Below are positions 7,594 through 31,954 of a DNA stretch of 64,000 nucleotides, piece by piece. Source of the DNA: Sipunculus nudus (Eukaryota > Annelida > Sipuncula > Golfingiida > Sipunculidae). Location: assembly GCA_026874595.1 (NCBI GenBank), contig CM049321.1, positions 14,031,479 to 14,095,478 on the forward strand. Reading direction: 5' to 3'. The position numbers and the translations under genes were made by a program. Every line of letters begins with the position of its first letter. The stretch's first letter is position 1. Below the pieces are notes generated by a model. It saw nothing but the letters and a program-made list of their open reading frames with translations, searched no databases and had not been told where the DNA came from.

Positions 7594-7599
7594 TTTATT
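7594..7599 (-). promoter_or_regulatory. AATAAA poly(A) signal overlapping the receptor stop codon
   Basis: Read on the minus strand the gene ends CAA TAA AAC, so the stop codon TAA sits inside a canonical AATAAA hexamer. If used, cleavage would fall about 10-30 bases beyond the stop, giving an extremely short 3' UTR and keeping the minisatellite at 6588-7465 out of the mRNA. The next AATAAA I noticed downstream is near 6390, beyond the minisatellite. Use of the site is inference. Confidence 0.4.
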
Positions 7600-10500
7600 G
7601 AATCTGAGGTCTTTGAGGTCTTTCTATCTTTCTCTTTCGCTTTTTCTTCATGTTCCGTTTTATCTGGCCGATTGCTGAGAATGTGTATAGAAATGGGTTC
7701 AATGCCGAATTTAATGGCAAAATCAGCACAGCCATCCAAACTGACAGAGTCTGGTCAACAGAGACCCCTCCAAGAGACAAAAATGACGTCACCACAAGAG
7801 GCACCCAGCAAAGAAAATCAGTGGCCACAATCATTACAAACCGTTGTGCTAATTCAATCTCTTTATCTGAAGCCTGTCGCTCTGCCATCCTCCTACTTGA
7901 ATCTGCAGACCAATAGATGCACACATACGAAACTAATAGAAATAGGAAACCGATTAAATTGAACAGCATGAAGATGAATGTAGAATATTCCCAGCCTTGA
8001 ACTTTACCTGCCGTCAAGTTAATCAACAGACAAACGCCGTGTTTGATGTTATTGTTTCCAAAGTATGAGAAACCCAGCACAGGGAGGGCGCTTAATATAG
8101 AAAATAATGTCCATCCACAAGCCATGATGGCGACTGCTGCTTTGAATGACAACTTCCGTGCCCTGACAGAGAATACTATTGTTACCAAGCGGTCAGCAGC
8201 AATGACAACGAGCATGAACACTGACATCTCACTGGACAAGGTTGAGAGAAATCCAGCAACCTTACACATTCCACTAGAACGCCACTCGTCAGCATGCAAA
8301 AAGTATTCCCCTCGGTATCTAACATCTGTCCAAGCTATGATTATCAAATATATTCCCATCATCAAATCAGACACTGACAGGTTTACAATAAGGACTGAAA
8401 TAACTTGTTTGCCTTGTGTGACCAGGCGTCCAATAATCACCGCGATGTTTCCCAAAACAGCCGCTACCCCAAGTATCCAAATTGCAACCCGCAAAATTGA
8501 ATTTGCCATAAGTTCATCACAGGTAGAGAATGCATCACCCCGGGGAGTGCACTTTTTTATATGTTTGGCAAAACAACAGAATTTATAGTGATCTGTGTGT
8601 AGCTCATCAAGGCTGATGTTATGAAAAGTGTCATGAAGCACTTGGTCAATATAATTTCCTTGAAGGTATAGACTTTGTATGTTGTCTAGCCCAGTCCACG
8701 TTCCAGCTGAGACATTAGAAAGTGAATTATTTGCTAGAGACAAAACCTTGATATTGTTGAGGCTTCGGAAACATTCATCTACAACTAAATAGATCTGAAG
8801 ATTTTCTAGGTAAAGATACCTGATTGACGTTAATCCTTCGAAGGCGTCGTCCAATAGGATTTTAATAGGATTTCCAGACAAAAACAGATGTTGCAAATTT
8901 TTTAACCCAAGAAACATGCCTTTCTGAATGGATTCAATCAGATTGTTTCTAAGGTCTAACAATAAAAGATTCTGCAAACTACCGAAAATTCCTTTATTTA
9001 GAGATTTGATTCCAAGATTTTTTAAATAAAGTTCTCCTAGATATACAAAAACTTTCAACAAGTGCTCCTGAGGGTAATTAAATGACATATTCCTTGAGGT
9101 TAAAGTAAGTGACCTGATATCAAAAGGCATTCCTGGTAATGAGTCATTCTCCATTACGGGGCAGGTGGCAGACTTACCTTTACAAACACATCTGGAAGGA
9201 CATTGATTGAATAAGCAGGCCGCTTCATCATCATGTGAATTTTTACAGTGTACAATTCCGTCACAAACCAACTTCTGGTCAAGGCATATCCGTTCTTTGC
9301 TGCATTTAAACAAACCAGGGCAACTCAACGATGCGCATTTAAATTCATCCTCGCCTTCAGGACAGTCACGTGTTCCATCGCATATTTTATGATAAGGTAT
9401 ACAGTAAGATGCTGGACACTTGAACATGTCTGGACATTCAAACAATGTACAGTTACGTAGATGTTCTCCGTCGGGACAAGACGACATGTATCCGTACTTG
9501 TCTTCGTCATATATACATGCTAAATGGCGTTCAAAACAAAGTACATGGTCGAGACGACATCGGGTGCGAGTTCCATTTCCATCAGGACAATACGGCTTCG
9601 TGTTAGCTTTTACTTCATTTAATGGCTTTCCGTCCTTGATATTGTACTCTGTCCATTTTCCTCTCTTAACATCTTTAAGCAATAGCGACTCGTCCTCCTG
9701 CAATTGTCCACCACAATCTTCCCTCATGTTATGCCGTAAATCGTTCGGTATGCATTCGCCAGAATTACATTTGAAGCCTCTACATTCAGTAGGATATTTA
9801 TGCCTGATATTTTCATCAGATGAATCAATGCAGTCAATAATATAATCCCCAAACTTGTGCTTTTCCAAACATTGTCCATTATCACACTTATGATAATCTG
9901 GAGGACACTCAGCAAATGTACAGTTTTTTTCGTCTGAATTGTCAGTGCAGTCTTTTCGAAAATCGCAGTATTTCGAAAATGGAATACACTGGCCATTTTC
10001 GCACCTGAATTTTCCTTTGCATGTACACTTTCTTTCATCTTCTCCCTCAAGGCAGTCCTTTTTCCCATCACAGACATGAACTGCAGATATGCATGTTCCA
10101 TCCGCACAACTGAATTGTTCTTGACCACAAGAGTGTGTTACCTTGGTTAGGGAAGTTTCACAGATAACGCTTCTCACTATGGATACAGAAAAGTTACTTG
10201 GTGTAAGATCAACTTCCCATTGACCAGCCGTTTGATTAAATATGAGCAGGTCACAGTCACCAATCCATATATTCCCATATTCAGAATGGTAGAGCCATAC
10301 ATCTAACAGTTCCAGCATAAAGTTCGTTGTGTTCAAAACCACACTTCCCATTACATCGTTGCACATTTTCTGTGCTGCATGACATGTGACTATCTGGTCA
10401 GTTGAGGTTGAACTGCTGACAAGTTTATAGCAGTTGCCTTGGTTTGCAGTATATCCAAATGGACATCGTTTAATGCCGGCGATGACCTCTGTTAAGTTAC

Positions 10501-10846
10501 CGGTATTTTTGTACTTTGTTCTAATGTCACCACTTGTGTTATCCAGCTTTATTTCATTGTCAATGGGCTGCTCAATTTCTTTTTTTAATGGATACTCACA
10601 TATAAAAGAAGACTTCGGATATGGGAACTCACAAGGAACATTAATCCAATATGTCGGCATAGAAGGAGATGCCACAACCATCGCCGTGCATCGGACGGAG
10701 GGATCATTTCTTGGTTGTAATAGCGACGGCGTGGCAAAGGTGATACCCTGTCCAAAGAAATCGTCCGGGAGAGTCTGTTCATCCGTAATTTCAGGTTTAT
10801 ACCATTCAGTATAGGTTGCAGGAGTACCATCGGTCCAACGATTAGT
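7595..10846 (-). CDS. CUB / C-type-lectin / LDLa / LRR / 7TM receptor, 3' coding exon (1,083 residues; GRL101-like)
   Basis: Last coding exon; residues below are counted within it (add 841 for the whole protein). 1-83 finish the lectin domain begun upstream (WTDG at 4-7, C53, C72, C83). 128-229 are a second, degenerate lectin domain. LDLa modules follow: 240-274 and 276-309 have all six cysteines and the acidic calcium motif, 314-344 and about 355-386 are divergent, 471-504 is complete, and 509-544 is good. LRR cap 549-562; six LRRs about 600-745; Cys-rich hinge 757-776. Seven helices span about 784-1057: GN at 799-800, D827 in helix 2, C861/C939 disulphide pair, DRL at 885-887 (DRY variant), CWVP in helix 6, NPFLY at 1050-1054. 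The short C-tail is very basic. The architecture matches molluscan GRL101 and the relaxin-receptor-like group. Expected role: plasma-membrane G-protein signalling. The upstream ATG at 10888 is intronic read-through, not the start. Confidence 0.88.
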   Translation of the reverse strand, partial: TNRWTDGTPATYTEWYKPEITDEQTLPDDFFGQGITFATPSLLQPRNDPSVRCTAMVVASPSMPTYWINVPCEFPYPKSSFICEYPLKKEIEQPIDNEIKLDNTSGDIRTKYKNTGNLTEVIAGIKRCPFGYTANQGNCYKLVSSSTSTDQIVTCHAAQKMCNDVMGSVVLNTTNFMLELLDVWLYHSEYGNIWIGDCDLLIFNQTAGQWEVDLTPSNFSVSIVRSVICETSLTKVTHSCGQEQFSCADGTCISAVHVCDGKKDCLEGEDERKCTCKGKFRCENGQCIPFSKYCDFRKDCTDNSDEKNCTFAECPPDYHKCDNGQCLEKHKFGDYIIDCIDSSDENIRHKYPTECRGFKCNSGECIPNDLRHNMREDCGGQLQEDESLLLKDVKRGKWTEYNIKDGKPLNEVKANTKPYCPDGNGTRTRCRLDHVLCFERHLACIYDEDKYGYMSSCPDGEHLRNCTLFECPDMFKCPASYCIPYHKICDGTRDCPEGEDEFKCASLSCPGLFKCSKERICLDQKLVCDGIVHCKNSHDDEAACLFNQCPSRCVCKGKSATCPVMENDSLPGMPFDIRSLTLTSRNMSFNYPQEHLLKVFVYLGELYLKNLGIKSLNKGIFGSLQNLLLLDLRNNLIESIQKGMFLGLKNLQHLFLSGNPIKILLDDAFEGLTSIRYLYLENLQIYLVVDECFRSLNNIKVLSLANNSLSNVSAGTWTGLDNIQSLYLQGNYIDQVLHDTFHNISLDELHTDHYKFCCFAKHIKKCTPRGDAFSTCDELMANSILRVAIWILGVAAVLGNIAVIIGRLVTQGKQVISVLIVNLSVSDLMMGIYLIIIAWTDVRYRGEYFLHADEWRSSGMCKVAGFLSTLSSEMSVFMLVVIAADRLVTIVFSVRARKLSFKAAVAIMACGWTLFSILSALPVLGFSYFGNNNIKHGVCLLINLTAGKVQGWEYSTFIFMLFNLIGFLFLLVSYVCIYWSADSSRRMAERQASDKEIELAQRFVMIVATDFLCWVPLVVTSFLSLGGVSVDQTLSVWMAVLILPLNSALNPFLYTFSAIGQIKRNMKKKRKRKIERPQRPQIQ

Positions 10847-11269
10847 CTGAAGTAAACGAAAGAAACAAAAGTAAGTATATTTTGGCATGCTACTTTATAC
10901 TCTAGCGGAGATTCTATGCTTAGTTTACTGAACTATATGTGAACTGAGCAAATTTTAAAGAGAGGTTAAATCAGAGTGGGCTATTATCTGGACACCAGCA
11001 TACCGGCAGCTAGGTAATGAAGAATGGTTCTGTCTCTTGTTACCATTTAAAGGTAATGTGTTACTATATACAAGAGAAAAAAAGGTTAAAAGGTTCCAGA
11101 AATATTGCTCTGCATCCATGAGATAAGGACTGTGAGAGGTGATGTCTCTGATATCATCTGATATATCACAGTCGTGATGAAGACTTTTTAAGAAAATGCA
11201 AGTCGGGGTTATTGTTTTAATAAAATCAACTGAACAGCACTGGTATATAATATACGTTTACTTCTATGA

Positions 11270-11273
<4 letters not shown>

Positions 11274-11328
<55 letters not shown>

Positions 11329-11330
11329 GT
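11274..11330. repeat. Compound (TA)n-(TAA)n microsatellite
   Basis: About 14 TA units pass directly into about 9 TAA/ATA units, inside the receptor intron. Confidence 0.9.
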
Positions 11331-11339
11331 TATATCTGT

Positions 11340-11700
11340 TACGCCCGAAATGTGTAATTGCCCTTTTCATGCAATGTGCAGTTATTTTGCACATTTCGTG
11401 AAATATATATCTCAGTCCTCTAAGGTGTAAAGGAGCATTTGAAGGAATCCTCCTGATTAATTATGTAAATGCCATCTGAGACACCCTACCGTATTTTGCT
11501 GGAGCTGTAATTGATAAATTGAAAAATATGCATATGAGAGTGGGTTGTAGTTGCCCGTCCAAGGCCGGTGGTTTTCTCCGGGTAATCCGGTTTCCTCCAC
11601 CCCTGCAGACTACCCTACGCCATCACCGGAGCCATGGAGAGTGCCTCGATTAGTTATATTATAAATATTTGTACAATCCATGTAAAATAAATGTTTATAA
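11340..11700. repeat. Possible SINE-like dispersed repeat
   Basis: The core at about 11560-11605 reads GGCCGGTGGTTTTCTCCGGG then TAATCCGGTTTCCTCCACC. I recognise close variants from many invertebrate genomes as part of short interspersed repeats. Upstream is a stem-forming pair CGAAATGTG/CACATTTCG (about 11346-11396). No RNA polymerase III A and B boxes could be assigned with confidence, so the class is uncertain. Confidence 0.4.
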
Positions 11701-11871
11701 TAATATATTTGTAGCTTACTTTTTACTAGTATACTTATATGTACGTATTTAAAAGTCTAGTTTTCAATTTTTTAATATATCAATCTACATAATAATTACT
11801 AAGCTTTATATTATATTATTTATTTATTACAAATAACATTAAATTTTAAAGAAAAATTTGAGAAAGAAAGA

Positions 11872-12167
11872 AAAAGGGATGGTTCTCAGGCACATTTTCT
11901 CGGAAATCGGTGCGGGCGGGGGGGGGGGGGGGCGGCGGCGGCGGTTATTTTTATTACCTTTTATTGTATGTTTCGATGAAAAGGTCATGTGATCAAGGAA
12001 AAGCATGAAAAAACATTTTTATTTCTAAACAGGTAAAAGCACTAAATAACAAAGGGAAGCTGTCAAAATTGTATTATTATGTCCTCTTGAAAGATGAAAA
12101 TCAAAATAAAATGTTTTTCGAGGGCGGTTAAAATTGACGCTGGCGGTGCCTGAGAACCATACCTTTT
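11872..12167. mobile_element. 296-bp MITE with 22-bp terminal inverted repeats
   Basis: The left terminus at 11872-11893 and the reverse complement of 12146-12167 match over 22 bases with one mismatch; the shared core is ATGGTTCTCAGGCAC. The interior holds a poly-G run followed by GGC repeats (about 11918-11943) and no open frame. Flanking target duplication is not clear because both sides are A/T-rich. It lies in the receptor intron. Confidence 0.75.
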
Positions 12168-12169
12168 AT

Positions 12170-13300
12170 TTTTTTTCCTGAACTGGTCTTGATAAGTTTT
12201 ATTTATCTCATAGCTTTAAGCGGCCCAATTATAACATACAATAACCTTCAAAGTACCTTTTATGAAGTCATAAACTCACCACACTGAATCAGTGCTGCGT
12301 TCATGCAGTGTAAGTTGGTTTTTTTTTCAACAGCTAAAAGTTATTTTTGTCAGCTTTGATTATTGTGAATCAAATGATTGTTTCTTAACGGTTGGCCAAA
12401 GTCTGAGTCAGAATATTCTATTTTTGTTCAATTATTTTCAAATGAACAGATTATTGGTATTTTGGTGAGATTCATAGTATATATTAATATATTATTAAAA
12501 TCCAGAAAAGTGTGCAGATGCTTATTTGTAAATTTCTTCCCTAAAAGTTATTTGAACATGTATAACATGATAATCGCAGATACATATTACATATTGAGAT
12601 AACATATTCTTTATTTAACAAAATAAACGTGTTTAAGATTTTCTTAATTTTATTTTTTATAATTTATCTTTTTACCAGTACTGGGAAATAACCCTCATAA
12701 TCCGAAAATGTTTAGGACACTACAGAAAAAAAATCATCTCATTATCGTGATTGTGAACACCTATACTAGATATCTAACTTAAGCAACATGTCAAACTCAA
12801 AGTGAACCAGTTATTATTCAAGACAATAATTTAAGCAGTATTAAGATTAATTGTTGCAACCTGCCATTATATATCAGTGTTTCAATATGTTTTCTCTGAG
12901 ATAAAAGAAATTAAAAATTTATAGTATATAATTTTTAAGTATAATTTATAATGTCGATCTTTGAAGGTTAAAAATAAGTAAACTTAAACTTCCTGATGAA
13001 ATCCATTCAAGTACTTTCATTGCATAAAATAAAATATAAAATATAAATAATTTAAAATACTGCCAGTAAATCATATTTTTATTTGTGTCATTTTAACAAT
13101 TTACTTTTATCATCAAACAAGCTCTGAACAACCTGAAATAAATGTATCACAGAATGATGAACATTTGAGAGAGAACCCCATGATTACAACTAAAAGTAAC
13201 AGAATATAAACTGAAATAGTTACATGTTTCATTGTCATTGGTGCTAAATAGTATTATATTTGCTCATATGATCAGGCTGATATGTTTTGTTTACATGTAT
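12170..13300. other. AT-rich intronic sequence without recognisable features
   Basis: Very AT-rich. The single open frame of 74 codons (12378-12602) has no recognisable domain and no repeat partner that I could see. Confidence 0.5.
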
Positions 13301-13307
13301 GCCTGTA

Positions 13308-13340
13308 CAGTCGGACCCCGTTAATCCGGCACCATCGGGG
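13308..13340. repeat. Left terminal repeat of the Tigger/pogo element
   Basis: TA|CAGTCGGACCCCGTTAATCC, then GGCACCATCGGGG, then repeated GCCGGATTACG motifs. CAG-initiated ends next to a TA target and CGTTAATCCGG-type subterminal repeats are typical of Tigger/pogo elements. The matching right terminus was not found between 15150 and 15600, so the element appears truncated upstream of its transposase. Confidence 0.6.
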
Positions 13341-13674
13341 ATGGGGAATTATGCCGGATTACGCAGTTTGCCGGATTACGTATCAGGGACACCCACAGCT
13401 AAAAACACAAACCCAGGGAAGAGCAATATTTGCCGTATCTGTGATTATAATTAAAAATGAATTATATTATGCATAAAGTAAAAATTGAGTGATAATAAAA
13501 GTAAATAAAACCCTTCAAACAATGTGCAAATAAACTTTATTCAAAAGTTCCAGCAGAATGTATCGATACAAAAAATAATGCAAATCGGAGGAATTACAGA
13601 ATCATCACCTATATACAATGTCCATATACATTTTTACACAGTGTGACTAGTTTTCACCAGGGTAAATGACTGAG

Positions 13675-15147
13675 TTACTTTGCACTGAAGTATCTGTCCA
13701 ATGTGCACTGCTTGTTGTCACGGAGAGCGGATGAATTGAGTCTAGACAGCATGTCTCGCAGAAGCAGCAAATCCCGCTCGCCGAAATCCTGGGGCTTCGT
13801 CTCCGCGTATCTGACCATATCCCGCAGTCCCTGTCTGGCGATCTTAGCAGTTGGCGGCTGCTTTTTCGTCCTCGCTATCATCATCGTCTTTCTTTCCGAC
13901 CGACACAATATCCAAAATGTCCGCGTCACTAAGCATATCTCCTGTAGGAACACCGGAATCAACCACGAGATATTCATCCGCGGTCAGCGTGTTTTCGATT
14001 GGTAGCTGAGCGACAACTCGGGCAAGCTCGGCAGTATCCGGCAGTGACGCAGAAGGGGGCGGGGCTGTCTCATCGCTGTTTGGGAGAATGCCTGTATGCT
14101 TGAAACAGTTGGCGATAGTCTGCTCGCTGACCTCGTTCCTAGCCTGTCTTATGAAGTAGATTGCATCTTTCACAGACGTTTTCTCTATTGCCCCACGGTC
14201 CTCAACTTGTGCAATCCAGTCCTTTGCCTGTATCTTTCTGTAGTGACATTTGAAGGCTTGAATAACACCCGCTTCCAGTGGCTGTAACTTTGACGTGGTA
14301 TTGGGCGGCAGATAAACCAGTCGAACATGATCCCAGTGCTGGTCTTTTTGAGAAGTGTGGTTGTCGACTAACAGCACGATTTTCCTTCCTTGAAGCTTCA
14401 TCTTTCTGTTTATCTGGCTGACGTATTCTTCAAACATAGTGCTGACCATCCACGCTTTCTTGTTATTCTTGTACGTAACGATGGGCGCGGGGTCGACTCC
14501 TTTAAAGCAGCGAGGTTTAGCGGATTTTCCGATCACGATTGGTTTTAGTTTCTCAGATCCGTCCGCAATTTGCAGCAAGACCAACTGTCAGCCGATCCTT
14601 GCACTTCTTAGTTCCCTTGACTGGTGCTGTAGCAAGTGTTCTGGCAGGGCCTAGGCGGAAGAATAATCCAGTTTCGTCAAAATTGAAAAGACTGTATGTT
14701 GCAAAGACTGTATCCGACAAGTGCTGCTTGAACGTCACTTCGACCCTTTGATTCGACTTGTTGGTCTACGCTCCCTGATTCACCATGCATGACGTGCTGT
14801 TTGATGCCACCTCGTGCTTTCATCCCCAGTTGCTGTCCTAGCTCTTTTGCTTTTTCACGGAGAATGTGGGCCACAATGTCTTTCAACCATAGTGTCAATG
14901 CCTCTTCCAGCTGTGCATGCTTGCCCATTTTCATCCTTTTCACTGTGTCTGTGCTTTCATCCATTTTCAGCCACTTGTCTTTGTTTGACAGTATGTCTGA
15001 CACAGTCTGACGACCAATGTCAATCTTGTGTTCAGTAGCAACCCATCCCACGATGTCTCTCTGTGTCGCCTTTGGGTGTTTTTCTTTGTAGAGGCAGATG
15101 TCTCTCTTAAGAGAAACATTGATTTCACAGCGCTTTCGTTTCGGCAT
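13675..15147 (-). pseudogene. Tigger/pogo transposase (CENP-B-type HTH + DDE_1), frameshifted
   Basis: The reading path runs from 15147 down. It starts MPKRKRCEINVSLKRDIC, a CENP-B/Psq-type helix-turn-helix. The second HTH is shortened by an internal deletion before KQHVMHGESGSVD. A frameshift near 14765 leads to the first catalytic Asp (FNFDETGLFF) and GTKKCKDRLTV. A second near 14580 leads to SEKLKPIVIGKSAKPRCFKG, the second Asp (LLVDNHTSQ) and PPNTTSKLQPLEAGVIQAFK, where the third acidic residue is Glu, not the Asp usual in this family. A third near 13850 leads to the C-terminal part ending QCTLDRYFSAK. At least three frameshifts and the internal deletion make it non-functional as read. 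The C-terminal QxxLxxYF matches a PCNA-interacting (PIP) motif, a known feature of pogo transposases. Confidence 0.85.
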
Positions 15148-15159
15148 AGCTGGCGTATG

Positions 15160-16890
15160 TCAATGACGAAAATAAATACTTTTTAATCACTGCAGTATTT
15201 ATAGGCATAAAAATCTTTAATTATTCACTCTTTTAAGTTTGTTCTTTGAAGTCACTTTAAACATAATTAAATAGAATCAAAACAAGTAACAAACATAAAC
15301 ACAATGATTAAATCTACTCAACATTGACACGTTGTTTATGTTTTCAACAAGCGAGACCTATACACCCTTTCATGTATGATGGGTCGACGTAACACTTTAG
15401 TTAAGCAAATGCCATATTCTTCTGGGATGGCTATTATTAGGGCGTGAAGTTAGGACTGCTAGGCTCAGTGGATCAACCTGTCCCGATCTCACACCACTAA
15501 ATGAGACTAAACACCAAAGCAGGAACCGTTCAGTTGTTAGTGCATTTTCTAATAGGCGCATGGATTATGATTTCTCAAAATTTTAAATAACCCGATAATA
15601 TAGAAAATAAATTGACCAAAAAATAACTGTTGATAATTATAGGTGACTTCGAGACTCGTGTTGGCACTGACCATTCTGGAAGCCGCATGTTCTTGGCCAG
15701 TTTTGGAAACGTTACTGATAATGACCAAAGCTTGTTGCAAATTTTATCAAGATCACACTTGCAAGGGACAACATCAAAGTTACACTGCAAACATACTTGA
15801 AAATCCATTGACCTGGATCCTAAAAGTTTGAGGTTAAATTACAACATCAGAGTGTACACTGTACAGAAACAAGGTAATCGGGCATACTACAGAGCAATCT
15901 TTTTGCAGAGCGTAGCCTTGAAGATATTGGCTCATGCTATTCTTACTCGTTTCTGATTGTGACAGAGATCAAGGATCCTGTCTGAAAGACTATGTAGATT
16001 CCGTCCTTCTCCGTACTCTTAATGTTCTGCATTTGCCTACTTCAGTAGAAGTCATATGGTAGACACCAATCATATTTTATGATTATGGTATTACTACAAT
16101 GAAATTGCATAACAAGGTGAATTGTGGTGGATAGATCAAGAAGCATGGTGATGCCACCTTATCACTCCAAGTATTTTTGCGGCTTCTTCAAAATAGTGCT
16201 TGGAAATAATAAAACAATTCCTATTAAGGAGAAGAAATAATCTTTATTCAGTATGATTATAATTTACTTCATACAATGGTAAATATTGGCCCATAGATCA
16301 GGAATGTGGCGGGCTCCACCATGTCATTTGTAGGGGATCTATGTTTTGGCCCCAACATCCAAACTTTCTAGTCACGTCAAAATGCAATTTGCGGGTCAAA
16401 GAAATGCAACCATCCTGGATTAATACAAGTTTGAAATCTTCCGTTTTCATCACTTTCTAGCAATGTTAAAAAAAATTGCCATTAAATATGACATAAGTAG
16501 CCTGTTTAAGGTCTAGGGGCAATACCGCGCATTCCCAAGTAACTAGTTGAAAGGGAATTTAGAAAAGGTACGTTCGTCTGAAAGGAATTCGAAATTTGTT
16601 AAACTTGTAAAGCAAAAGACCCTTTTCAGCCTCTGACGTAATTGATACCCTAGTGATTGGATTGCAGTGAAAATAAGGATAATTAAAATGCAGTTGGGGC
16701 AGCTTAAATGTCTGTGTACACTCTGTGCATAATTCTGATTTCAAAGTTAATAATATGGCAATTGACAGAAGAAAATGCAAACAAGTCCAAGAGGTTTTCT
16801 GCTACCACTGTCGCTGTTAAACACCATTAAAACAGCTACAGAAAAATATTACAAATTTATAAAAATAAGTTTATTTAGCTTATTTTGGAA
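15160..16890. other. Intronic sequence without a supported gene
   Basis: Short open frames on both strands carry no recognisable domain. The last part may belong to the pseudogene that follows, but I cannot align it from memory. Confidence 0.4.
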
Positions 16891-16899
16891 TGAAAATGG

Positions 16900-17900
16900 G
16901 CGACTAAGACTATTCTTTTGCACCCATACAGTCTTTTGGGCTTGTGATTAAAACCTATGAGAGTGGACAAAAGGAACGAAAAAAATCTTGACCTTTCGTA
17001 TTTCCATTGGTATGGAGAGAGCCACAGTATGATCCAGCTGATTTGACATTATTTATTGATAGCCAAAAGCTAGCCCAAAGTGTGTCTAGTAGTACAATAG
17101 CAATTAATTTGCTTAAATTCCAATCGATCATTCTGTCCACTTTAAAGAAAATTTCAAAAGTATGGAAATGGTTTTAGAGAAGATGAAATAAAACGAATGA
17201 ACGAGATAATATGTGGGGATCTGAAGTTCATTGGATTGCTTCGTGGCTTGCAGGGGGAATACACAAAATATCAATGCTTCTTGTGCTTATGGAACAGTCC
17301 AACAAAAGCCGAGTTTTCAAAAAGAAAGGTATGGCCTGCAAGACAGAAATTCAATGTTGGAAAGAGAAATATCAAGAACAGACAACTTGTTGATCCAAAG
17401 AAAGGTATATTACCTCCACTCCATATTAAGCTTGGTCTCATGAAGCAGTTTGTGAACACTTTGGGATCTTAGATTGCCCTCAGATTAGGTGTTTATTGCA
17501 TGACCAGCATAGTGTCTGATCACTATGAAGAAAACTTAAAAGGACAGTATTGACTGCATTAACAAATGTTGTCTCAAACGTCCTTAGGAACACAACATCA
17601 CAAAAGACCTCATCAAGAAACTGCTGAACAATTTTCAGTGATTTGGCTGTAATATGAGTGGAAAGAATCAATTCCTTCAGAGTCATCTAGAATATTTTCT
17701 TGAAAAATCTTGCTGCCATGAGTGAGAAACATAGCGAAAGATTCACCAGAACAAAACAAAATATATAAAAAAAATAAAAATAAAATTAACATAAAAAAAA
17801 AACATAAAAAATCGTTACCAGGGGCGGTGGAAATCAGCTATTCACGTAAAACCAAGATAAGAAAATTCAATCCTGAAGCTAGTGCCAAATGTAAATTAAA
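16900..17900 (+). pseudogene. Remnant of a multicopy, uncharacterised animal gene family
   Basis: Scattered over all three plus-strand frames are motifs that I recall from a large family of unnamed proteins repeated in many animal genomes. In order: LFIDSQKLAQSV (about 17052-17090); LRGLQGEYTKYQCFLCLWNS (about 17236-17297); LPPLHIKLGLMKQFVNTLG (about 17410-17466); LEYF and a broken relative of LGAVSDEHGERFHQ (about 17685-17745); RYQGRW (about 17814-17832); and a basic tail around 17850-17875. Frameshifts and stops separate them. Function of the family is unknown to me. Its copy number suggests mobile-element or host-gene amplification. A second copy of the tail (CACGTAAAACCAAGA.AGA) recurs at about 18121. 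Confidence 0.6.
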
Positions 17901-22285: not shown

Positions 22286-23011
22286 ATATAAACAGACTCT
22301 AAAATCACTCTAAACTGGTCAAAATGTTAGAGGAGCCGTCATATAATCATGAGCGTAACTTGTTAATACCATTTCTCTTTAGTGACTATAACATATTTAT
22401 ATTTATTTCTTTGTTCCAATTTGAATTATATGTGAGCGAAAGAGAAGATACATGGAAAATATAAGTATAATTAAGACACTTTGGACAAATCACTCGAAGA
22501 CATCTTCAGTGAGTGACATCTTCAGCCGCACTAAAGAAAAAATCATTTTATCAAACTGGAATGAAATGCAATACTATTTGGAGGTGACATATGGCGTAAC
22601 CGAAAACCCTAATTAGGACCGCAATGAAAAGTGCAAGTTCCGATACTCATTTTATCCATAAAATGGGATGTATACATTTAACAAATTTAAATAAGGTGAC
22701 AATAACATAATATAAGAACAAAAAAAGGGAAATGTTTTTAGTTTTCTGTATTGAACCGCCAAGATGACTGAAAGTTGAACTGAAAACAATCTCATTCAAA
22801 ATGTTTTTAAGATAAATCATTCCACTGAATTGAAATCGAATCGAATTCGGGATGTGGAACCAAAGAAGAGACGGATTGTTCTTGATGGGTTTCATGGCGG
22901 AAAGACGGATAGACAGGATGTTTGGGCTATTTCTAATTAGCACCACATGATCAGAAATAATTAAACTGAAGCTAAAAATCATTGAAAAAAAGTTGAACCA
23001 AGCGTAGAAAA

Positions 23012-23235
23012 TAGGGTATTACGTTTCAAGCATATGTTAATTCTGAGCCAGGTTTCGATATAATATTTCATAGAAATCTCATAAGTGGAATCAAAGTCTA
23101 TAATTCTATTTGTTAATTTTTATTTATTTATATACTTATTTCATTGGCAATATATGAATATTATTCTCTGAATAGGGGGGGGGGGGAGATGGGTGATACA
23201 TTGACCGTCCCTCATCCCCCTATATTTACGCCCCG
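23012..23235. repeat. Second copy of the dispersed repeat at 380-600, with poly-G
   Basis: It shares GTTAATTCTGAGCCAGGTT-type sequence, the following ATATTTC.TAGA block and the terminal CCCCcTATATTTACGCCCC-like motif with 380-600. A poly-G run lies at 23176-23188. Confidence 0.45.
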
Positions 23236-23473
23236 CCCTTGCAAAAAAGAAAATAATCATAGGTCGCAGATCGCAGATCTGTACTGTGCATTACAAATAG
23301 GAGTGGAAATGCATGTCAGCTGTATTTTCCTGCGTCTTACTTTTTTCTTCTTTAATTTTTCTTCAACTACTGAGATTCTGGACAAAGATAATTTCAGACC
23401 ATATCACAGTAAAGTTTCATATTTAATACTTGGTGGGGCAAAGATTCTATAAAGTGGCGAAAGACAGACCCCT

Positions 23474-23475
<2 letters not shown>

Positions 23476-23516
<41 letters not shown>
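23476..23516. repeat. (TA)n microsatellite
   Basis: About 20 consecutive TA units. Confidence 0.95.
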
Positions 23517-23518
<2 letters not shown>

Positions 23519-24034
23519 TAAAGTATCATAAGAGTTCCTTCCTTGAAAGGACACTTGCATTTATGATCTTATTATTACTTAAGAGCTCCTTAATTTTTCG
23601 CAGAACTGCATTAAATCTAATAAGGCCCGTAGGTTTGATAGCTGTCTAACTTGAGCAGGTGCGTTAATCTGCACCAGAACAGCCATTCAGAGCACATAAT
23701 CGCGTGTAAACAAGCCAGAAAATGTGAAACATCACATTTAGACAGGCTGTTAAACTCAGGTATGCAGTGTGCAGGCAGTTTAGTCCACAGGCTAAACAAT
23801 CGGCAGGGGAAATTGATCTTTGGTAACATTCTGCAGAACTACTCGCTTTAAAAATACTCTTCTGCATGCAGTATTAAACCACTTTTTTAACACACATCTG
23901 TGACAACCATAGAGAACAACAGATCAACAGTTAATACAGAAGAGCAACCCGAACTTTTGTATAACAGACCGTCTAAATTGTTTAAACATAAAATTGGAAC
24001 AGGATAAACACTCCGACGTCACAACTCGTTCTCG

Positions 24035-24042
24035 TATAAAAG
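24035..24042 (+). promoter_or_regulatory. TATA-like box, possible LTR promoter
   Basis: TATAAAAG preceded by a CRE-like GACGTCAC (about 24015-24022), about 1.56 kb upstream of the gag-like ATG at 25605. A TGTGACAACC at about 23901 could be the start of the 5' LTR of the gypsy element. No second LTR copy was found, so this is a suggestion only. Confidence 0.25.
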
Positions 24043-24496
24043 CACCAAGCTGAAAATCTCACGTGGGCTGCACCTTAGTTTTTGACTGTTACGATGTCTC
24101 ACCAGGCCTAGTTTAGGATGTTATTCTGTTATTCTTTTCGTATGGACAGATACCGGTGAAATGTGTTGTGTTTTGTGAATTGCTCCTCCGAAGCCCCCGG
24201 GGTCGTATTTTGACTATGTAATTCGTGAATTGGAGAAACCCTGAATCTAATTATTCCGTTTATTATAAATATGGGTGTCTCACCTGGACAGTTTTTGTTT
24301 ATGTAACCGGAACGAACCATTTTATTATTATGCATATTGTAAATAATGTTTGTGTTAATATAAGTATTATCAATTAATATAAATATTATAATTTATAAAT
24401 AATATTATTAATTTTTAATGTAATGAATTGCAACTCAACAACAAATTCCTGACATTTAAAGCAAATAAATGTTATCTTATCTTAACTTATTATATA

Positions 24497-24498
24497 GA

Positions 24499-24560
<62 letters not shown>
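24497..24560. repeat. (TA)n microsatellite
   Basis: About 31 consecutive TA units. The open frame across it is an artefact of Tyr/Ile alternation. Confidence 0.95.
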
Positions 24561-24563
<3 letters not shown>

Positions 24564-25052
24564 CACCGGAGAAATATGACTTGGTTGTATTGTTGTTTAA
24601 TGATGATTTATTTTTTTATAATTCATTGTACAATAATAAAGAGGAGGCCTATCATGTTTAGATGGTATCGTTAGAACTAAAGTTAGAGAAAACACGTGTC
24701 TTGTTTGTTTTAAATTTCAGTACGGTTTATTCTTGGGATCCGTTTCTGTCTAGAAGATCTCTATTGTAACGTTGTTTATTGTAGACTAGAAAGCAACAGA
24801 ACCTGCTTAGTACGATCTATGGGGGCATGTCCATCTTTATATTCATGTAATTATTGACTTAGATATTCACAGCAAAGTGTGACGTGAGATGCTTGACATT
24901 CCACTGTCACGTGGTTGCGATGGTCGTGTTTAGGAGCTGTGTAAACGAAAAAGACTTCCGTTTAAAGTTTAATTAACCGACTTAGTGATTTTTGTGATGC
25001 TTATCGGATACTTGTGATGATCATTTTTTTTTATTTATGGAGCGCCTCTTCA

Positions 25053-25091
<39 letters not shown>

Positions 25092-25604
25092 CTGTATACA
25101 TTTTTAACTATACTGATTTGTTTTGTTAACTAATGACTTATTCATCTTTTGGGGTGTATGTATTTAGCCGGTTTTGCGGTGTGTCATTTTATTGGCGAGC
25201 GCGTTTCCAGGATTTCTCGCCACATGTATTCTAAACATTCTTTCATGATTTATTTAGCCAGTGGAGAGCTAACATCCTGTCAGGAATTTTATTCCCTGAG
25301 TATTTGGTGAAACTTTCATATTGATTATTGATGAAACATCTTTGAACAGTTTAGTATTTTGTAATATTTGAAACTGAGAGTCACACGACAGATAGGCGGT
25401 TCCTTTTAATTGGTGTACTCAGACTTTAGTAACACATACGCGATGTTCATCCATCCTTCCGTGCGTCTTTTGATTTTCGGTGCAGCCCATGTCTGATTGT
25501 AAGGATACGACCGGTTCACATTGTCAGCGTTCCATCATAACGTTTAAGGATTTTTGTGTTTGTTACGCGGTTCACTTGCTTAGTCGATCAGTTTAGCCGT
25601 AAAC

Positions 25605-27960
25605 ATGAAATCTTTGAAGTCCATTATCGAATGTGGGCAAATGTCAGGGCAGAAGGACGATGCCCTGCAAGTATTTTTGTTAAAAGGGTGTAGTGGCTTG
25701 AGAAGCCAAGCAGGAAGACGCAAATCGCGATAAGAGGGCTAGACGGAGATAGACGAAACGTGAACAGAGTTTGACGGAACGGGAACGTGAAGCAGCAGAG
25801 CGAGAACGAGAGCGTTAACATGAAACCGGAGCCCACGAAATAGAGATGCTGGAATTATAGTCAGTTATCAATAAAGAGTCTAGCGATGAGGGCGATAGTG
25901 AACAGATGAGGAGTAGGCAATCGGACCAGAAACTCAAGCTCCCTCCTTTTGATGAGCAGCTCGATAAGCTAAATGCATTTCTAGAGTTGTTTGAACTGTT
26001 AGCCTTGTGTCGAAACTACGATCGAGATAGCTTGGCCATATAATTTCTTTGTTGCGTGGTAAGGCGTTTGATACTTATGAGCTGTTACTATTTAGCGACG
26101 CCATGGATAACAATAGTTAGCTCTTTTAAAGCGTTACAATTTGACTGAGGAGGGTTATTTTAACAAGTTTTGTACTTGTAGGCCAGAGAGTGGCGAAACA
26201 TTTCGTGGTTCGGCTTGGTGGATACCTTGGCCAGTGGATTGAGATAGCAGTTAAAGGCGATGATTTCAACCTCTTAGTTGACTCGCTAGAACGCGAACGT
26301 ATTGGAACTGTTGCAGCAATGATCTCTCTATATTTTTTGGATACAGTATCCTAGTATAGATAGCATGGCCGTTTTACGGAGGCGCACGGCTACCACAGTC
26401 AAGTTCCCGTGGTAGTTCACCCAAGCAGGGAAGCAAGTAACTCAGCCGAGAGAACAACGTGATGTAGATTATGGATCACGTGAACCGTCAGTTAAGCCAT
26501 CAGGAGGCTTACGTTGCTTCGTTTTTTAACAGGTTGGGGCATAAGGGCGTGAATATAAACAGACCAGTGCAAGGTATGGGCCAAGGTCTCCCCAACAAGC
26601 GTAGCACTCAGCTGTTGAACAGCGTGGGGCTAAAACGAGTAGTAGTCAGGGGACTAAGCCGAAGGGTAAGCACGAATCTAAGTCCGAGTCGGAAACCGTC
26701 AGTCCCTTTAATCGGGATTTGGATAAACAGGGCCAGTCACTCGGATTGACTGCTCTAGAAGAGGTAGCTCTTCATCCATTTCTTAGGGTTTATTTTACGG
26801 CAAAGCATCCAAGGTGTTATGGATGCTCTACAGCAGGAGTACGTGAAACATATGTGGATCAGGACCAATTCACCGGAGCCAACCTCGAGTGTCGGTTGTT
26901 TGACGGATTGGCTAAGCGTTTTTCTACGGCTAGGCAAGCGACAACAGCGCGTTAGAACGGTCCGGGAAAGTATTACAGATATCCCCAAACTCACCGATTT
27001 CATCGAATTTAACATTCGAATCACGTCTGATACACAAGTGAAGTCGATACCGAATCGTGTTTTGTTTGTTTTGAGAGAGATTATGTGTTCAGAAATCAAC
27101 CAGATGTTAAAGTTAGGCATAATCGATAAATCGAGGTAGAGTTTTGCACCACCATGCATTATGCTGCGTCAACCAGACGTAAACATATGATTAGTGATCG
27201 ATTTCCGTAAATTGAACCAGTCGGTCTTATTCGACTTTAAACCGATGCCTGAACCATAAACACTGTTCACGGAAGTAGCTAAAAGGCGATACTTTACCAA
27301 GATTAATCTGATGAGAGGCTACTGACAGATTCCGATGTCAGAGGAATCTAGAGACAAAACAGAATTCGTAACGCCTGACGGACAGTACTATTTCAGGGTC
27401 CATTCGATTTAGTGACGGCCGGAACAGTATATACCTGCATGATGCGAAAGTTGTTCAGCGACATGCCGAACTTGATTTGCTATATAGGCCACGTTCTAAT
27501 ACGAGCGGAAACGTTGGACGAGCATTTATACACCCAGAGAAGTGCTAGCTAGACTGGAAAGAGCCAACCCTGCGGCGAAACAAGCAAAAATATTCGTAGG
27601 TTATCGCAGTCGAGAATTTTTTGGGCCACCTTTTAGGCGCCGGTTACCAAGCTACTACCTCGTCCCTGCTTACGAAAATCCAGAGCGCAGATAGACTGAA
27701 AACCAAGAAAGCCTTGCGATCCTTTCTATAGGTATTACCATTTATTACCTGAAGTATGCCAAGATAGCGGTTCCGCTAACGGACATTAAACGGAAAGGAC
27801 AGTCTAAAAAATTGGACTGGAAAGAGGTCCATGAGAATGCGTACTGTTCATTTCAGCTAAGCTTGCTGATCCCCCATTCTAAGACTGACGGATATCAGTA
27901 TGCGGTTCTATCTGCAATGCGCGCCAGTTTAGGTGTAATCTGATGATTGGCAAGTCTGCA
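25605..27960 (+). pseudogene. Degenerate Ty3/gypsy retrotransposon (gag-pol)
   Basis: A gag-like start is at 25605 (MKSLKSIIECG), followed by an Arg/Glu-rich stretch (about 25730-25830) and KLKLPPFDEQLDKLNAFLEL-like sequence near 25930. Pol motifs follow in broken frames: VIDFRKLNQSV (27195-27230), YFTKINLMRGY (about 27292-27325), FVTPDGQYYFRV (27367-27402), MMRKLFSDMPNLICYIGHVLI (27440-27500), and the RNase-H connection KTKKALRSFL / YYLKYAKIAVPLTDIKRKG (27703-27800). At the YxDD position the two aspartates read Gly-His, so the catalytic site is lost. Stops and frameshifts are numerous. No integrase core, CCHC knuckle or 3' LTR was recognised. A possible primer-binding region (ATTGGCGAGCGCG) lies near 25190. 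Confidence 0.75.
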
Positions 27961-28253
27961 TTCATTAGAGTGTGGACAGCTGAGAGATGATAACTGAAAG
28001 CGTAAATAGTCGATTTCTGAGGAAGGGCACACAATTACCTATGGACTGGTCATCCAGTGATCTTTTATCATTTGTGAACGCTTCCAGTTGCAGGCCAAAA
28101 CATTTTCTACAGGCGTCTTCGTCAGGTGGTAATTCGAAGAAGCCTGTGTGCTTCAAATGCTTTTGCGTAAATAAACATGTAAGTGTATTTAAAAGGCGTC
28201 ACTCTTTATCTTTACCTACGCTTCAACAATAGACTAACACGGCTATACCACTT

Positions 28254-28255
28254 AT

Positions 28256-28290
<35 letters not shown>

Positions 28291-28300
28291 TTATTTATAT
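28254..28300. repeat. (TA)n-rich microsatellite
   Basis: Interrupted TA tract with TTTA breaks. It follows a Cys-containing open frame (27987-28232) whose origin I do not recognise. Confidence 0.85.
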
Positions 28301-29380
28301 ATATCTGAAAAAAAACACTGTAAATTCACAACAGTCTGTTTCACGGGATGCGACCCGATCATCAAGAAAAAATGGTTAGAATGAAGCTAACGGCGTGGTT
28401 TGAAAAGCCGAGACTTTACGAGATTACGAGATTATGCTTTGTGCGATTCGGGGCGGGGCGGGGGGGCGTGTGAAAGACTGACACTGATCCTATCGTCCTC
28501 GGGGGCACAATAGGATTGGTCGGGGTACACGTGAGATACTGGAACATAACAGGGCAAAGAGGTTATTTGTTGTTTTAATGTTTATATATAATAATACAAA
28601 GATATATACCAGGATGCTCAATTAGCATATTACACTGATTTGTAATAGGGTCTTGGAAGCAAACATATCAGTAGTATACATATGATATAAATACACATAT
28701 ACTATGAAAATACACAATATACAAGGCAAATATGCAATATAAAAGGCAAATATACTATACTTTACTCATACCAAGTGGAATCCCCTCGGTAAACTCACCA
28801 TGCTGTAGTGGTAACGCCATGTCCCTCAACACTGAGACCAACTACCTGAACAGGTAAGTCTGCCCAGCGGATCCACGTTTTGGGGGGGGGGGGGGGTTAA
28901 TGGTAGGGGGGCACGCTGAATATTAGTACGAATGCTAGGTTTTAAAATATCTCAGGGTGAATTTGTTTTGATGGCGGCACTTGGAGAGAATTTCAGCTCT
29001 TGAGTTCAACAATGATCCAGGAGGGGCCGTTGCTATAAGTAGCTTTTCAGACAAGCAGATATCACACTTCCTAGTCCCGCCGAAGTAAGGTGCTGCCTTT
29101 GCAGATATTTCCCAGGAGAGCTTGTAATTAATATTGTTGTCTTTTCTGTGACCAAATGTGTTTAGACAGTTCAGTATTTTTAGTATTTTTTATTATCTGG
29201 CGTTATCCTCGGTGCTCTAAGTGTGAAAATGTCAGCTAAATGTGAATGCAGTGATAGCGGCCTCATGAAATAACCCATAAAAGCACAATTAATAGGTGTA
29301 ACTTAAATCCCTGAGGCCATACTAAGTCACTTTATTTTTACATGAGTATTTGTTTATAAGAAAAATGTACGGCTGTCCAA
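28300..29380. other. Intronic sequence, nothing recognised
   Basis: Contains poly-G runs at about 28450-28467 and 28880-28896. No gene or repeat boundary identified. Confidence 0.45.
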
Positions 29381-29431
29381 TTTTTAATATATATTCTGTC
29401 TAATTGTGAGCAATAACTGATGTTCACTAAC

Positions 29432-31954
29432 CTTGCCTGAAGCTGTAAGCCCGATGTATATTGTCCATTTCATTTCGTATGTATTCGTACGTATACGTTT
29501 ATATATGTCCATTTCGTACGTATTATAGTCTTCAGCAAGCCATCGGCGTTTCAGCATCCCTTTTATGAATGACAACTCAAGTTTGTTATCAATTCGCAGC
29601 AAACTACCTCCTTGTTCTTTACATATGTCATTTGCATCATTCCATGTGAGTTCATTATTCTTATTTTTATGGTACGAATAACATGAGGTCCTAAACCTTA
29701 CACTTCTAATAGTTTCACTATCGAGGCACATTTCTTCACTCTTCTCCGGACGTGGTTCCAAATTTTTCTCCAGTTTATAATCTAGTTTAATCATCTGGTC
29801 CCAGTCTCCTGATATTTTAGTAGAAAAAACGTAACTCCATGCTGTTATGTGCTGATATGGCAAATTGTAACCATTTATCCGGAAGGTTAATGCTAGGTTT
29901 ACTTTTATATCCTTGATATATGATATTTCCTCGATTGTAAAAACAAGAGGAGAGCTTTTCTTGTAATCAGGACACTTTATGTTCAAAGAAAAATGATAAT
30001 CCTTGTATAAATGCATTGGTGCTCTTAGCACTATATGGTGGGTTTTAGGCCGATCGATCCTCACGGCGACATTAAGAGCAGAATCAAACACCTGCATGGC
30101 CGAATGGTCAATATGCGCATATTGATACTTTTGTATTATACTACTGATTTCCATAATGTACCCTCTTGTAGTGACATCGCATTTGCATACATAAGAAAGC
30201 CTATGGAAATAGCTATCGTGAATATTTTCCGATCTTTTGAGAGTAAAATCACACCCACTTATTTCAGTATGTCTGGATAAGAAATTTAACTGTTTTAGAC
30301 TAGTGGCCACAAAAATGTTTTGATTAGTGCGGCATGGTAGCTCTGATGGTAAACCCTGGAACTGAAAACAAATTCCATCCTTTGCAAATAACATAATTTT
30401 CCCAAAATAATTAAGTCTCCGTAATCCACGTAATTCGATTTCACGTACTATTTTGAAATTGAATATACCAAAGCATGGGGTCTCTGTGATAGTAAAAGTA
30501 ACTGAAGTTGTGTTTGTTGGCCCGTAGGAATAAAACAAGACTTTCAGGGAATGTCCAGTGGAATGAATCGAGGGACTTGGTTCCTTGAAGAAATTATTTG
30601 CTGAAAGGGTACCACAGAAAGGTCCATATTTCTCATCGCTGCTATCCTTTCCGTTCCAAATTATGATGCCTTCGTTTGCGCAGTTATCTACATTTGGACC
30701 ATCAAAATTATATTTTTCCAGTTTGAAGGATAAATATAAATTTGAAGACTTGAAATCATAAAATGAAAACCTGGGTAATGGATTACCAACCATTGATTCA
30801 GTTATTGTGCTATTTCCGTCCGCTTTTATATCAACAGTTTGACCGTTATGTTTTGCAAAGCTTTCATAGAAAGCATCGAAATATCTGATAGTGCAGGAGC
30901 GGGGTTGTTTAAGCCGCACATGTACCTGAAATCCACTAGAGATGATGTTTTTATGATACATTTCTTTCCCTCTGTCACTTTGTAATATCAAACCAGCACT
31001 GAACGGTCCGTCGTTTATATCAATTTTAATGCTGTTTCCGACAAGACACGAGCTGTTTAACTGCCAAGTTAAATTTATTTTAGTGGTCTCTTCAACACGT
31101 ATATACCATTCGTAAATGATATTTTGTTTCTCTACTATGTTTGGCTTAGCTGGTGGTACATTGAATGATCCGATAGGGGCACTCAATTTCATTGGTGGTG
31201 ACATCTTTAAATCTGCTCCGTCTACTCCTTGATATTTTATTCTAAATCCAGTACTCGGCATCGAGTCGTTAAAACGAAAGTTTATTCGCACTTTGTTCGA
31301 AGCTGTGACACTTGTCCAGGTAGTTCTTTTCCCACATACAGTGTATGCTTTTTCTTCCTCGGTGTCATCCACGAAATTGTAAATAGCCAGTGAGTCACAT
31401 AAGCATTGTTCTCCGCAGAGTTGTATGTTCATGAGGTCAAAGTTGAGGATTATTTGTTTTCCAACATCGATTTTTATCGTCCAATTACAGTTCAGTTTTC
31501 GGCCACTCCCTGAGGTTTTATATGTAATACTTCCACAAGCAGATGTCAGATGACCAAAGGAACCACAGCCGGAAGCACCAAAACCGAGATCACACACTGG
31601 CAAAAGACTGGATCTTGTATTTATATCCAAGAAGGGCAAATTATTCCGGCTTAGGAACAACTTATAAGCCTCATATACACATTCCTTCCTTGTGCTATCG
31701 TAAGTTTCGCACAACGTTATATCATATATATCTATGCCAGGGGGTAATTCTGGTTTCGACAAGATTTTTCTCAAAGATTCGTTCACTGATGCGAGTTGAA
31801 GCAAAGCGGAATTCTTAATTGCTCGATATTGTGGTTTTGAACTTTCATCTATCATGCACGTTGTAGATTCCTCATTAATAACAGTATCTCTGGCAAATTC
31901 CAGTTGTGTCATGATAATTCCTGTCATTGACAACATAAAACCCAAAAACGCCAT
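29432..31954 (-). CDS. CUB / C-type-lectin / LDLa / LRR / 7TM receptor, 5' coding exon (residues 1-841)
   Basis: This exon encodes the extracellular N-terminal 841 residues of the large receptor completed by the exon at 7595-10846. Residues 1-20 are hydrophobic and fit a signal peptide. A CUB domain spans about 140-242, with paired cysteines at C140/C156 and C180/C207. A second, degenerate CUB-like segment lies at about 380-490, with an FCGTLS motif near 446-451. A C-type-lectin domain starts near C758, with its helix around residues 771-795 and an IGLT core at 833-836. The open frame runs on to 29384, but the lectin fold breaks at the donor AAG|GTTAGT (intron starts at 29431), so I end the exon at 29432 in phase 0. 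The ATG at 31954-31952 is the first in frame. A possible acceptor (CACTTTTTCAG) lies 27 bases upstream of it with an in-frame stop beyond, so a non-coding 5' exon is likely. Family membership is recognition; ligand unknown. Confidence 0.85.

What the first reader, a model, noticed from the sequence alone, without database searches (positions are those of the whole stretch)
7595..31954. One 1,924-residue receptor joins CUB, C-type lectin, LDLa, LRR and 7TM modules
Seen: two long minus-strand frames end and begin inside complementary halves of one C-type-lectin domain, with donor AAG|GTTAGT at 29432/29431 and acceptor TTCAG|ACT at 10847/10846, both phase 0. Known: GRL101 and relaxin-type receptors combine LDLa, LRR and rhodopsin-class domains. 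A CUB-lectin head on the same chain would make it a GPCR with a pattern-recognition-like or carbohydrate/protein-binding ectodomain. Inference: it senses a soluble or surface ligand through several module types, perhaps in immunity, development or gamete recognition.
Basis: partly seen in the sequence, partly recalled or inferred. Interest (0 to 1): 0.85.

Follow-up and report, generated by a model that had tools for sequence, protein, structure and literature searches.

The report
CUB–lectin-headed GRL101-like GPCR gene family
This animal gene encodes one large cell-surface receptor whose outer part combines CUB, C-type-lectin-like, LDL-receptor and leucine-rich modules on a hormone-receptor-type seven-pass core, and its genome carries many sister copies and broken remnants, as expected of fast-evolving recognition receptors.

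Summary
Exon A (31954-29432, minus, 841 codons) and exon B (10846-7595, minus, 1,083 codons) join in phase 0 into 1,924 residues; joining completes a C-type-lectin-like domain. In the window's own genome, 14 paralogous loci have GT and AG at the same places (introns about 0.2-24 kb). A fifteenth paralogue (C2) has no intron there: one 1,895-codon frame carries head, lectin-like domains, LDLa, LRR and 7TM. So head and receptor are one gene, at 16 loci, 7 with fully open frames. The closest published relatives seen are GRL101-like GPCRs with a lectin-like domain in Biomphalaria's schistosome-resistance region SudRes2; that paper's text has no 'CUB'. The window protein lacks sugar-binding motifs, so 'lectin' function is not predicted. 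Most likely a type-C2 LGR offshoot whose fast-evolving head recognises an external or cell-surface ligand and signals through G proteins; ligand and function are inferred. A new variant of a known kind.

The parts
31982..31990 (-). Splice-acceptor-like CTTTTTCAG 27 nt before the ATG; suggests an upstream (probably non-coding) exon
   Evidence: by eye clear in 11 of 15 heads compared, plausible in 2, doubtful in 2; no chance rate computed
29432..31954 (-). Exon A: 841 codons, start Met to donor; N-terminal region, CUB domains, first half of C-type-lectin-like domain 1
31895..31954 (-). Probable signal peptide (residues 1-20, by inspection)
   Evidence: no signal-peptide predictor was run
31232..31507 (-). 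CUB domain (matched residues 150-241)
   Evidence: Pfam PF00431 E=6.3e-17, 62.3 bits; profile of five heads hits cubilin E=1.6e-26
30521..30721 (-). Second, degenerate CUB-like domain (matched residues 412-478)
   Evidence: Pfam CUB E=4.1e-4, 21.1 bits, just under cut-off 21.4; hhalign to first CUB E=6.7e-5, probability 63.6
29432..29695 (-). C-type-lectin-like domain 1, N-terminal half (residues 754-841)
   Evidence: Pfam Lectin_C 25.9 bits alone
10847..29431 (-). 18.6-kb phase-0 intron inside C-type-lectin-like domain 1
   Evidence: intron at the same place at 14 paralogous loci, about 0.2-24 kb
7595..10846 (-). Exon B: 1,083 codons plus stop; second half of CTL1, CTL2, LDLa, LRR, 7TM
10580..10846 (-). 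C-type-lectin-like domain 1, C-terminal half
   Evidence: joined domain 40.3 bits; seven-member profile aligns across the junction to lectin-like domains of PLA2R (whole chain E=2.6e-63)
10142..10468 (-).
   Evidence: no Pfam hit alone; seven-member profile hits PLA2R 2.7e-6 and NKG2D 8.7e-6 as whole chains; profile match to CTL1 at 89% probability over 59 N-terminal columns
9212..10135 (-). Block of LDL-receptor class A repeats (six Pfam stretches) and other Cys-rich units
   Evidence: Pfam PF00057 E=5e-32
8618..9034 (-). Leucine-rich repeats
   Evidence: Pfam LRR_8 E=1.3e-29; ends approximate, from PDB matches
7685..8452 (-). Rhodopsin-class seven-transmembrane domain with DRL (DRY position), CWVP, NPFLY
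   Evidence: Pfam 7tm_1 E=7.1e-30; motifs; best GPCR in PDB is relaxin receptor 1, E=1.6e-72 over LRR and 7TM

Best explanation
A single-chain GPCR of the GRL101-like (type C2 leucine-rich-repeat GPCR) kind: signal peptide - about 100 residues - CUB - unassigned - CUB-like - about 260 unassigned residues - C-type-lectin-like domain 1 (split by the intron) - degenerate C-type-lectin-like domain 2 - LDLa/Cys block - LRR - hinge - 7TM. Shown by sequence and comparison: the chain is one gene, the two giant exons are joined in phase 0, and the architecture recurs in a family of at least 16 loci. Inferred: the fast-diverging CUB/lectin-like head captures a protein or glycoconjugate ligand (pathogen-, symbiont- or cell-surface-derived); this moves the LDLa/LRR/hinge block against the 7TM, as in relaxin receptors, and signals through a heterotrimeric G protein. 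Architecture about 0.97 likely; recognition of an external or cell-surface ligand by the head about 0.5.
For: Joined Lectin_C 40.3 bits against 25.9 and none for the halves; the joined C4 and C1 paralogues score 41.7 and 34.1 bits with matches across their junctions. GT and AG at the same places at 15 of 15 inspected loci; intronless C2 paralogue. At 16 of 16 loci with both, the head is 5' of the tail on the same strand. Both exons look constrained against C16_61.60: dN/dS about 0.34 in the head (0.46/1.37) and 0.23 in the tail (0.23/0.98). Head diverges faster: 44% identity against 75% in the 7TM. 9 of 16 loci have broken frames, a birth-and-death pattern. DRY-, CWxP- and NPxxY-type motifs kept. 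Published relative: a cluster of GRL101-like CTL/LDL/LRR GPCRs in a schistosome-resistance region (PMC12297450).
Against: No transcript, ligand or signalling data. The window protein has no EPN/QPD motif, so sugar binding is not predicted. dN/dS is below 1 on average and dS is high even for the closest intact pair (1.37 in the head); no site test of positive selection was made. Two intact paralogues (C1, C4) have a short head with no CUB detected, so the CUB head is not essential to the family; C2's CUB is weak (18.6 bits, under cut-off) and Pfam finds no Lectin_C in C2. Family size does not separate immune, chemosensory, gamete and hormone receptors: GRL101-type receptors also have several paralogues in chelicerates and decapods (PMC7357564). 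Broken frames could partly be assembly errors.
Confidence: 0.5

Rival explanations
1. It is a peptide-hormone receptor: the LRR/LDLa part binds an insulin/relaxin/IGF-like peptide as proposed for GRL101, and the CUB/lectin-like head only tunes presentation or adhesion.
For: Best solved GPCR relative is relaxin receptor 1 (E=1.6e-72); GRL101 is argued to be an IGF receptor (PMC8286064, passages). The 7TM is the best conserved large block. Several GRL101-type paralogues also occur in chelicerates and decapods (PMC7357564, passages), so many copies do not exclude a hormone receptor.
Against: In ambulacrarians one ortholog of each such receptor is reported (PMC8286064); here there are 16 head+tail loci, 9 with broken frames, and the head looks constrained.
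Confidence: 0.3
2. Chemosensory or gamete/self-recognition receptor rather than immune: the head reads conspecific or food-borne macromolecules at sensory or reproductive surfaces.
For: Multi-copy birth-and-death family; a GRL101-like gene is enriched in sensory tentacles of crown-of-thorns starfish (PMC6267866, passages).
Against: The passages on that starfish protein describe LDLa and LRR only. No expression data here.
Confidence: 0.2
3. Two separate genes: a secreted CUB/lectin protein (exon A) and a GPCR starting within or near exon B.
For: 18.6 kb separates the frames; exon B's open frame extends 16 codons into the intron and includes a Met; 2 of 9 paralogous tails checked also have an in-frame Met just upstream.
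Against: The halves alone are incomplete lectin-like domains; GT and AG at the same places at 15 of 15 loci, with gaps as short as 228 bp between matches; one continuous frame in C2; 7 of 9 paralogous tails checked have no in-frame Met upstream of the acceptor.
Confidence: 0.02

Closest known systems
GRL101-like GPCRs with a C-type-lectin-like domain in Biomphalaria sudanica SudRes2 (PMC12297450; found passages and section 9 read)
   Same: C-type-lectin-like + LDL class A + LRR + rhodopsin-class 7TM on one chain; multi-copy, some members incomplete, presence/absence between haplotypes
   Different: 'CUB' does not occur in the main text and one lectin-like domain is described; here there are CUB, CUB-like and two lectin-like domains. 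Two short-headed paralogues here (C1, C4), with no CUB detected, resemble the published layout more
Lymnaea stagnalis GRL101 and type C2 LGRs
   Same: Many LDLa repeats + LRR + 7TM close to relaxin receptors
   Different: Described with LDLa and LRR; no CUB or lectin-like head mentioned in the passages seen. The original 1994 paper was not held
Relaxin receptors RXFP1/2 (type C1)
   Same: Best solved GPCR match over LRR + 7TM (residues 623-1057 of exon B, E=1.6e-72); LDLa on an LRR-GPCR
   Different: One LDLa module and no CUB or C-type-lectin-like domains (recalled)
Mannose-receptor family (PLA2R, DEC-205/LY75, MRC1/2)
   Same: Closest solved C-type-lectin-like domains
   Different: Single-pass endocytic receptors without a GPCR part (recalled)

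Membership tests
GRL101 / type C2 leucine-rich-repeat GPCR | Rhodopsin-class 7TM nearest to relaxin-type (type C) LGRs | tested here: met
   PDB: RXFP1 248 bits against LHCGR 177 and LGR4 152; the matched stretches differ (RXFP1 and LGR4 include LRRs, LHCGR mostly 7TM). No tree with named LGRs was possible
GRL101 / type C2 leucine-rich-repeat GPCR | Several LDLa repeats N-terminal to LRRs | tested here: met
   Six Pfam LDLa stretches, then LRR_8; L. stagnalis GRL101 is reported with twelve
GRL101 / type C2 leucine-rich-repeat GPCR | Clusters with named GRL101 in an LGR phylogeny | not testable with these tools
   No collection of animal proteins at hand; only own-genome paralogues were treed
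SudRes2-type CTL-GRL101 subfamily | C-type-lectin-like domain + LDL + LRR + GPCR on one chain | tested here: met
SudRes2-type CTL-GRL101 subfamily | Orthology to the Biomphalaria genes | not testable with these tools
   Animal genomes are not among the searchable collections
Sugar-binding C-type lectin | EPN or QPD motif and WND in the binding site (recalled) | tested here: not met
   No EPN/QPD in the window protein; its only WND is at residue 771, in the first half, not the binding site. EPN in C4 and QPD in C11_52 lie outside the lectin-like domain
CUB-domain protein | Significant CUB domain | tested here: met
   Pfam 62.3 bits against cut-off 21.4; 5 of 5 long heads match CUB at E<=0.1, C2 only weakly (E=0.0024, 18.6 bits, under cut-off); C1 and C4 show none

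The most novel reading that the evidence does not exclude
A lineage-specific class of germline pattern-recognition GPCRs: CUB/lectin-like heads that evolve by birth and death bind microbial, parasite or symbiont surfaces directly and signal through heterotrimeric G proteins. A further possibility not excluded is head swapping: a near-intact orphan head 173 kb upstream on the same strand keeps a donor and an acceptor-like site, and no tail of its own was found.
Probability: 0.3. Interest if true: 0.8.

Novelty: new variant of a known kind. Interest (0 to 1): 0.52.

Why it matters
Few GPCRs are known to carry ectodomains built like pattern-recognition receptors (recalled). A snail study links lectin-headed GRL101-like GPCRs to schistosome resistance and calls that head unique to the SudRes2 genes, with orthologues in other Biomphalaria. 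The head sits on a separate giant exon that can lie 18-24 kb away, so gene models can easily lose it; published short models could be checked for missing heads. The phase-0 intron splitting the lectin-like domain gives a simple marker for finding the whole family.

Tried and rejected
Two-gene reading: rejected (paralogue junctions, intronless C2).

Host identity: the COX1 search met nine bacterial-type genes on contigs C60-C89, a gene on C123 that sits in a bacterial cbb3-type cluster, and a 51-position piece on C5 with a TGA, perhaps nuclear mitochondrial DNA and not examined. No whole mitochondrial COX1 was seen, so the host phylum is not established. RuBisCO search negative, so an autotrophic symbiont is not supported by that marker. 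The one genome-contig scan showed one of the bacterial COX1 (L061) at most 58% identical to named bacteria in the 80 rows kept, which does not name the lineage.

Domain repeats: hhalign of head segments supports two CUB-like domains only. One further segment matches the first CUB at E=0.0021 but 13.5% probability; the others match nothing convincingly, and of the three remaining segments two were scanned with Pfam without a significant hit.

Literature: 10 searches used. In the titles, abstract starts and passages seen I found no CUB domain on an LRR GPCR. Of the 9 papers holding both 'GRL101' and 'CUB', I looked up both terms in 6: every 'CUB' passage shown was a journal DOI. One more was opened for other terms and two were not opened. 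The library holds only open-licence PMC papers and no protein databases; annotated database proteins with this layout may exist.
Full report
OBSERVATION. The window lies at G000:C16:14031479-14095478 in a 1.43-Gb assembly of 153 contigs. Its two longest open frames, 1,099 and 871 codons, are both on the minus strand at the stated places; 50 Markov-resampled windows gave longest frames averaging 151, at most 210. The donor AAG|GTTAGT (29432/29431) and acceptor TTCAG|ACT (10847/10846) are exact and phase 0. The joined CDS has 1,924 codons without an internal stop.

DOMAINS. Exon A: CUB (62.3 bits) and the first half of a C-type-lectin-like domain. Exon B: LDLa (six stretches), LRR, 7tm_1. Lectin_C scores 25.9 bits on the cut-out A half (22.0 in whole exon A, under cut-off), nothing on the B half, 40.3 bits joined. 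A seven-member profile of this domain aligns across the junction in 8 listed domain matches of PLA2R, one of them not significant alone and one marginal. A second CUB-like domain lies at residues about 412-478 (21.1 bits against a cut-off of 21.4; profile match to the first CUB E=6.7e-5). A second, degenerate lectin-like domain starts at exon-B residue 128: a seven-member profile hits PLA2R (2.7e-6) and NKG2D (8.7e-6) as whole chains, single PLA2R domains being insignificant, and matches the first lectin-like domain over its N-terminal part (89%). Four of the seven CTL2 members were scanned alone with Pfam: one gave a weak hit to a C-type-lectin-like model (0.0076, under cut-off), three gave none.

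PARALOGUES. Exon B found 55 matches and exon A 30 matches in the own genome (lower bounds). I assembled these by eye into 16 loci holding both head and tail, each with the head 5' of the tail on one strand: the window, C16_61.60, C16_61.49, C16_13.92, C10_57, C10_78, C11_43.32, C10_22, C11_52, C4, C1, C16_13.87, C16_35, C11_42.97, C11_43.12 and C2. In 15 of these (all but C2) GT and AG stand at the homologous donor and acceptor (by eye; the C10_22 acceptor is weak; phase checked by length for 6 of 15). The gap between head and tail matches ranges from 228 bp to 24 kb. C2 has one frame of 1,895 codons reading through the site. In C2 Pfam finds LDLa, LRR and 7tm_1, CUB only weakly (E=0.0024, under cut-off) and no Lectin_C; its lectin-like sequence aligns with the others (33% to the window) and its head is 21% identical to the window's. 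Heads without a tail: an orphan at C16:14236353-14238867 (one net frameshift, donor and acceptor-like site kept, 80% nucleotide identity to the window head) and a degraded piece at C16:35.696. Tails without a detected head: C11_43.29, fragments, and LGR- or LRR-like genes elsewhere, such as those on C5, C3, C4:86, C7 and C14.

INTACTNESS. Fully open: window, C16_61.60, C10_57, C11_52, C4, C1, C2 (7 of 16). The other 9 have stops or frame breaks in head or tail; assembly error is not excluded. C4 and C1 have short heads (268 and 252 codons before the junction, counted from the frame start) that begin with their own hydrophobic N-terminus and show no CUB; a divergent far-upstream exon is not excluded.

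5' END. By eye, 11 of 15 heads compared have a clear splice acceptor shortly before the ATG, 2 a plausible one, 2 none clear; no chance rate was computed. The gene probably has an upstream exon.

EVOLUTION. In a tree of 12 rows (10 tails and two other LGRs from C5) the window pairs with C16_61.60 (100/100); C2 falls beside the C5 LGRs on a long branch flagged as unsure. C10_57 and C11_52 carry CUB heads and C1, in the same clade of 8 (98/99), shows none, so the CUB head was probably lost in C1; whether C4 lost it depends on C2's unsure place. The two C5 genes have splice-like sites at both ends of an LRR-TM exon, one inside the 7TM region, unlike the single-exon tail here; a retroposed origin of the giant exons is possible but not tested. 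Between the window and C16_61.60: head 44% identity (dN 0.46, dS 1.37), tail 65% (dN 0.23, dS 0.98), 7TM 75%. In the other three comparisons dS is near or at saturation.

MECHANISM. Shown: one chain, multi-module ectodomain, conserved GPCR motifs (DRL, or ERL in C2; CWxP in 6 of 7 and TWIP in C2; NPxxY in 7 of 7), signs of constraint on both exons. Inferred: the head binds a ligand, LDLa/LRR/hinge transmits to the 7TM, G-protein signalling follows. The window protein lacks the sugar-binding motif, so protein-protein recognition is at least as likely.

COMPARISON. B. sudanica SudRes2 has 12 GRL101-like genes, ten with LRR, LDL and a lectin-like domain, in a region associated with schistosome resistance; six more such genes lie elsewhere in that genome, and orthologues are reported in B. 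glabrata and B. pfeifferi. The authors call the lectin-like head unique to the SudRes2 genes and suggest pathogen sensing (PMC12297450: found passages and section 9). GRL101 is described with LDLa and LRR (PMC8286064, PMC12297450, PMC4079206; passages). In ten searches I saw no paper describing a CUB domain on an LRR GPCR, and in the six papers checked for both 'GRL101' and 'CUB' the CUB passages shown were journal DOIs. So: new variant of a known kind. Against a purely immune reading, GRL101-type receptors have several paralogues in chelicerates and decapods too (PMC7357564, passages).

LIMITS. No transcripts, no animal protein collection, no named host. Counts of loci and junctions are by eye from printed calls.

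Noticed in passing
13844-15159 (-): Transposase remnant in the intron, probably pogo/Tigger-like (name recalled): DDE_1 endonuclease frame (E=2e-37) and a separate ABP1/CENP-B-like DNA-binding frame (5.5e-5).
   Followed up: partly
6583-7462: Minisatellite of about 21-bp units (41 copies, higher-order 254-bp unit) just 3' of the gene; the 178- and 199-codon frames there lie largely in it.
   Followed up: no
G000:C16:14236353-14238867 (-), loci L033/L035: Orphan head exon 173 kb upstream of the window head, 80% nucleotide identity, one net frameshift, donor and acceptor-like site kept, no tail listed between; dN/dS 0.47 and 0.65 in its two parts.
   Followed up: partly
G000 contigs C60, C61, C62, C66, C72, C74, C75, C89 (two copies); locus L061: Nine nearly equal-scoring COX1 genes on separate small contigs; the one examined (L061) is bacterial-type and at most 58% identical to the named bacteria kept: an unnamed bacterial associate or contaminant in the assembly.
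   Followed up: partly
G000:C123:8500-12500, locus L065: Bacterial cbb3-type oxidase-like cluster (ccoN/O/P-like frames, named from recall) on a 112-kb contig: perhaps a second bacterial source in the assembly.
   Followed up: no
L011/L054 (C2:34892159-34900435): Paralogue with the whole 1,895-codon receptor in one open frame, raising the question whether the lectin-splitting intron was gained in the others or lost here.
   Followed up: partly
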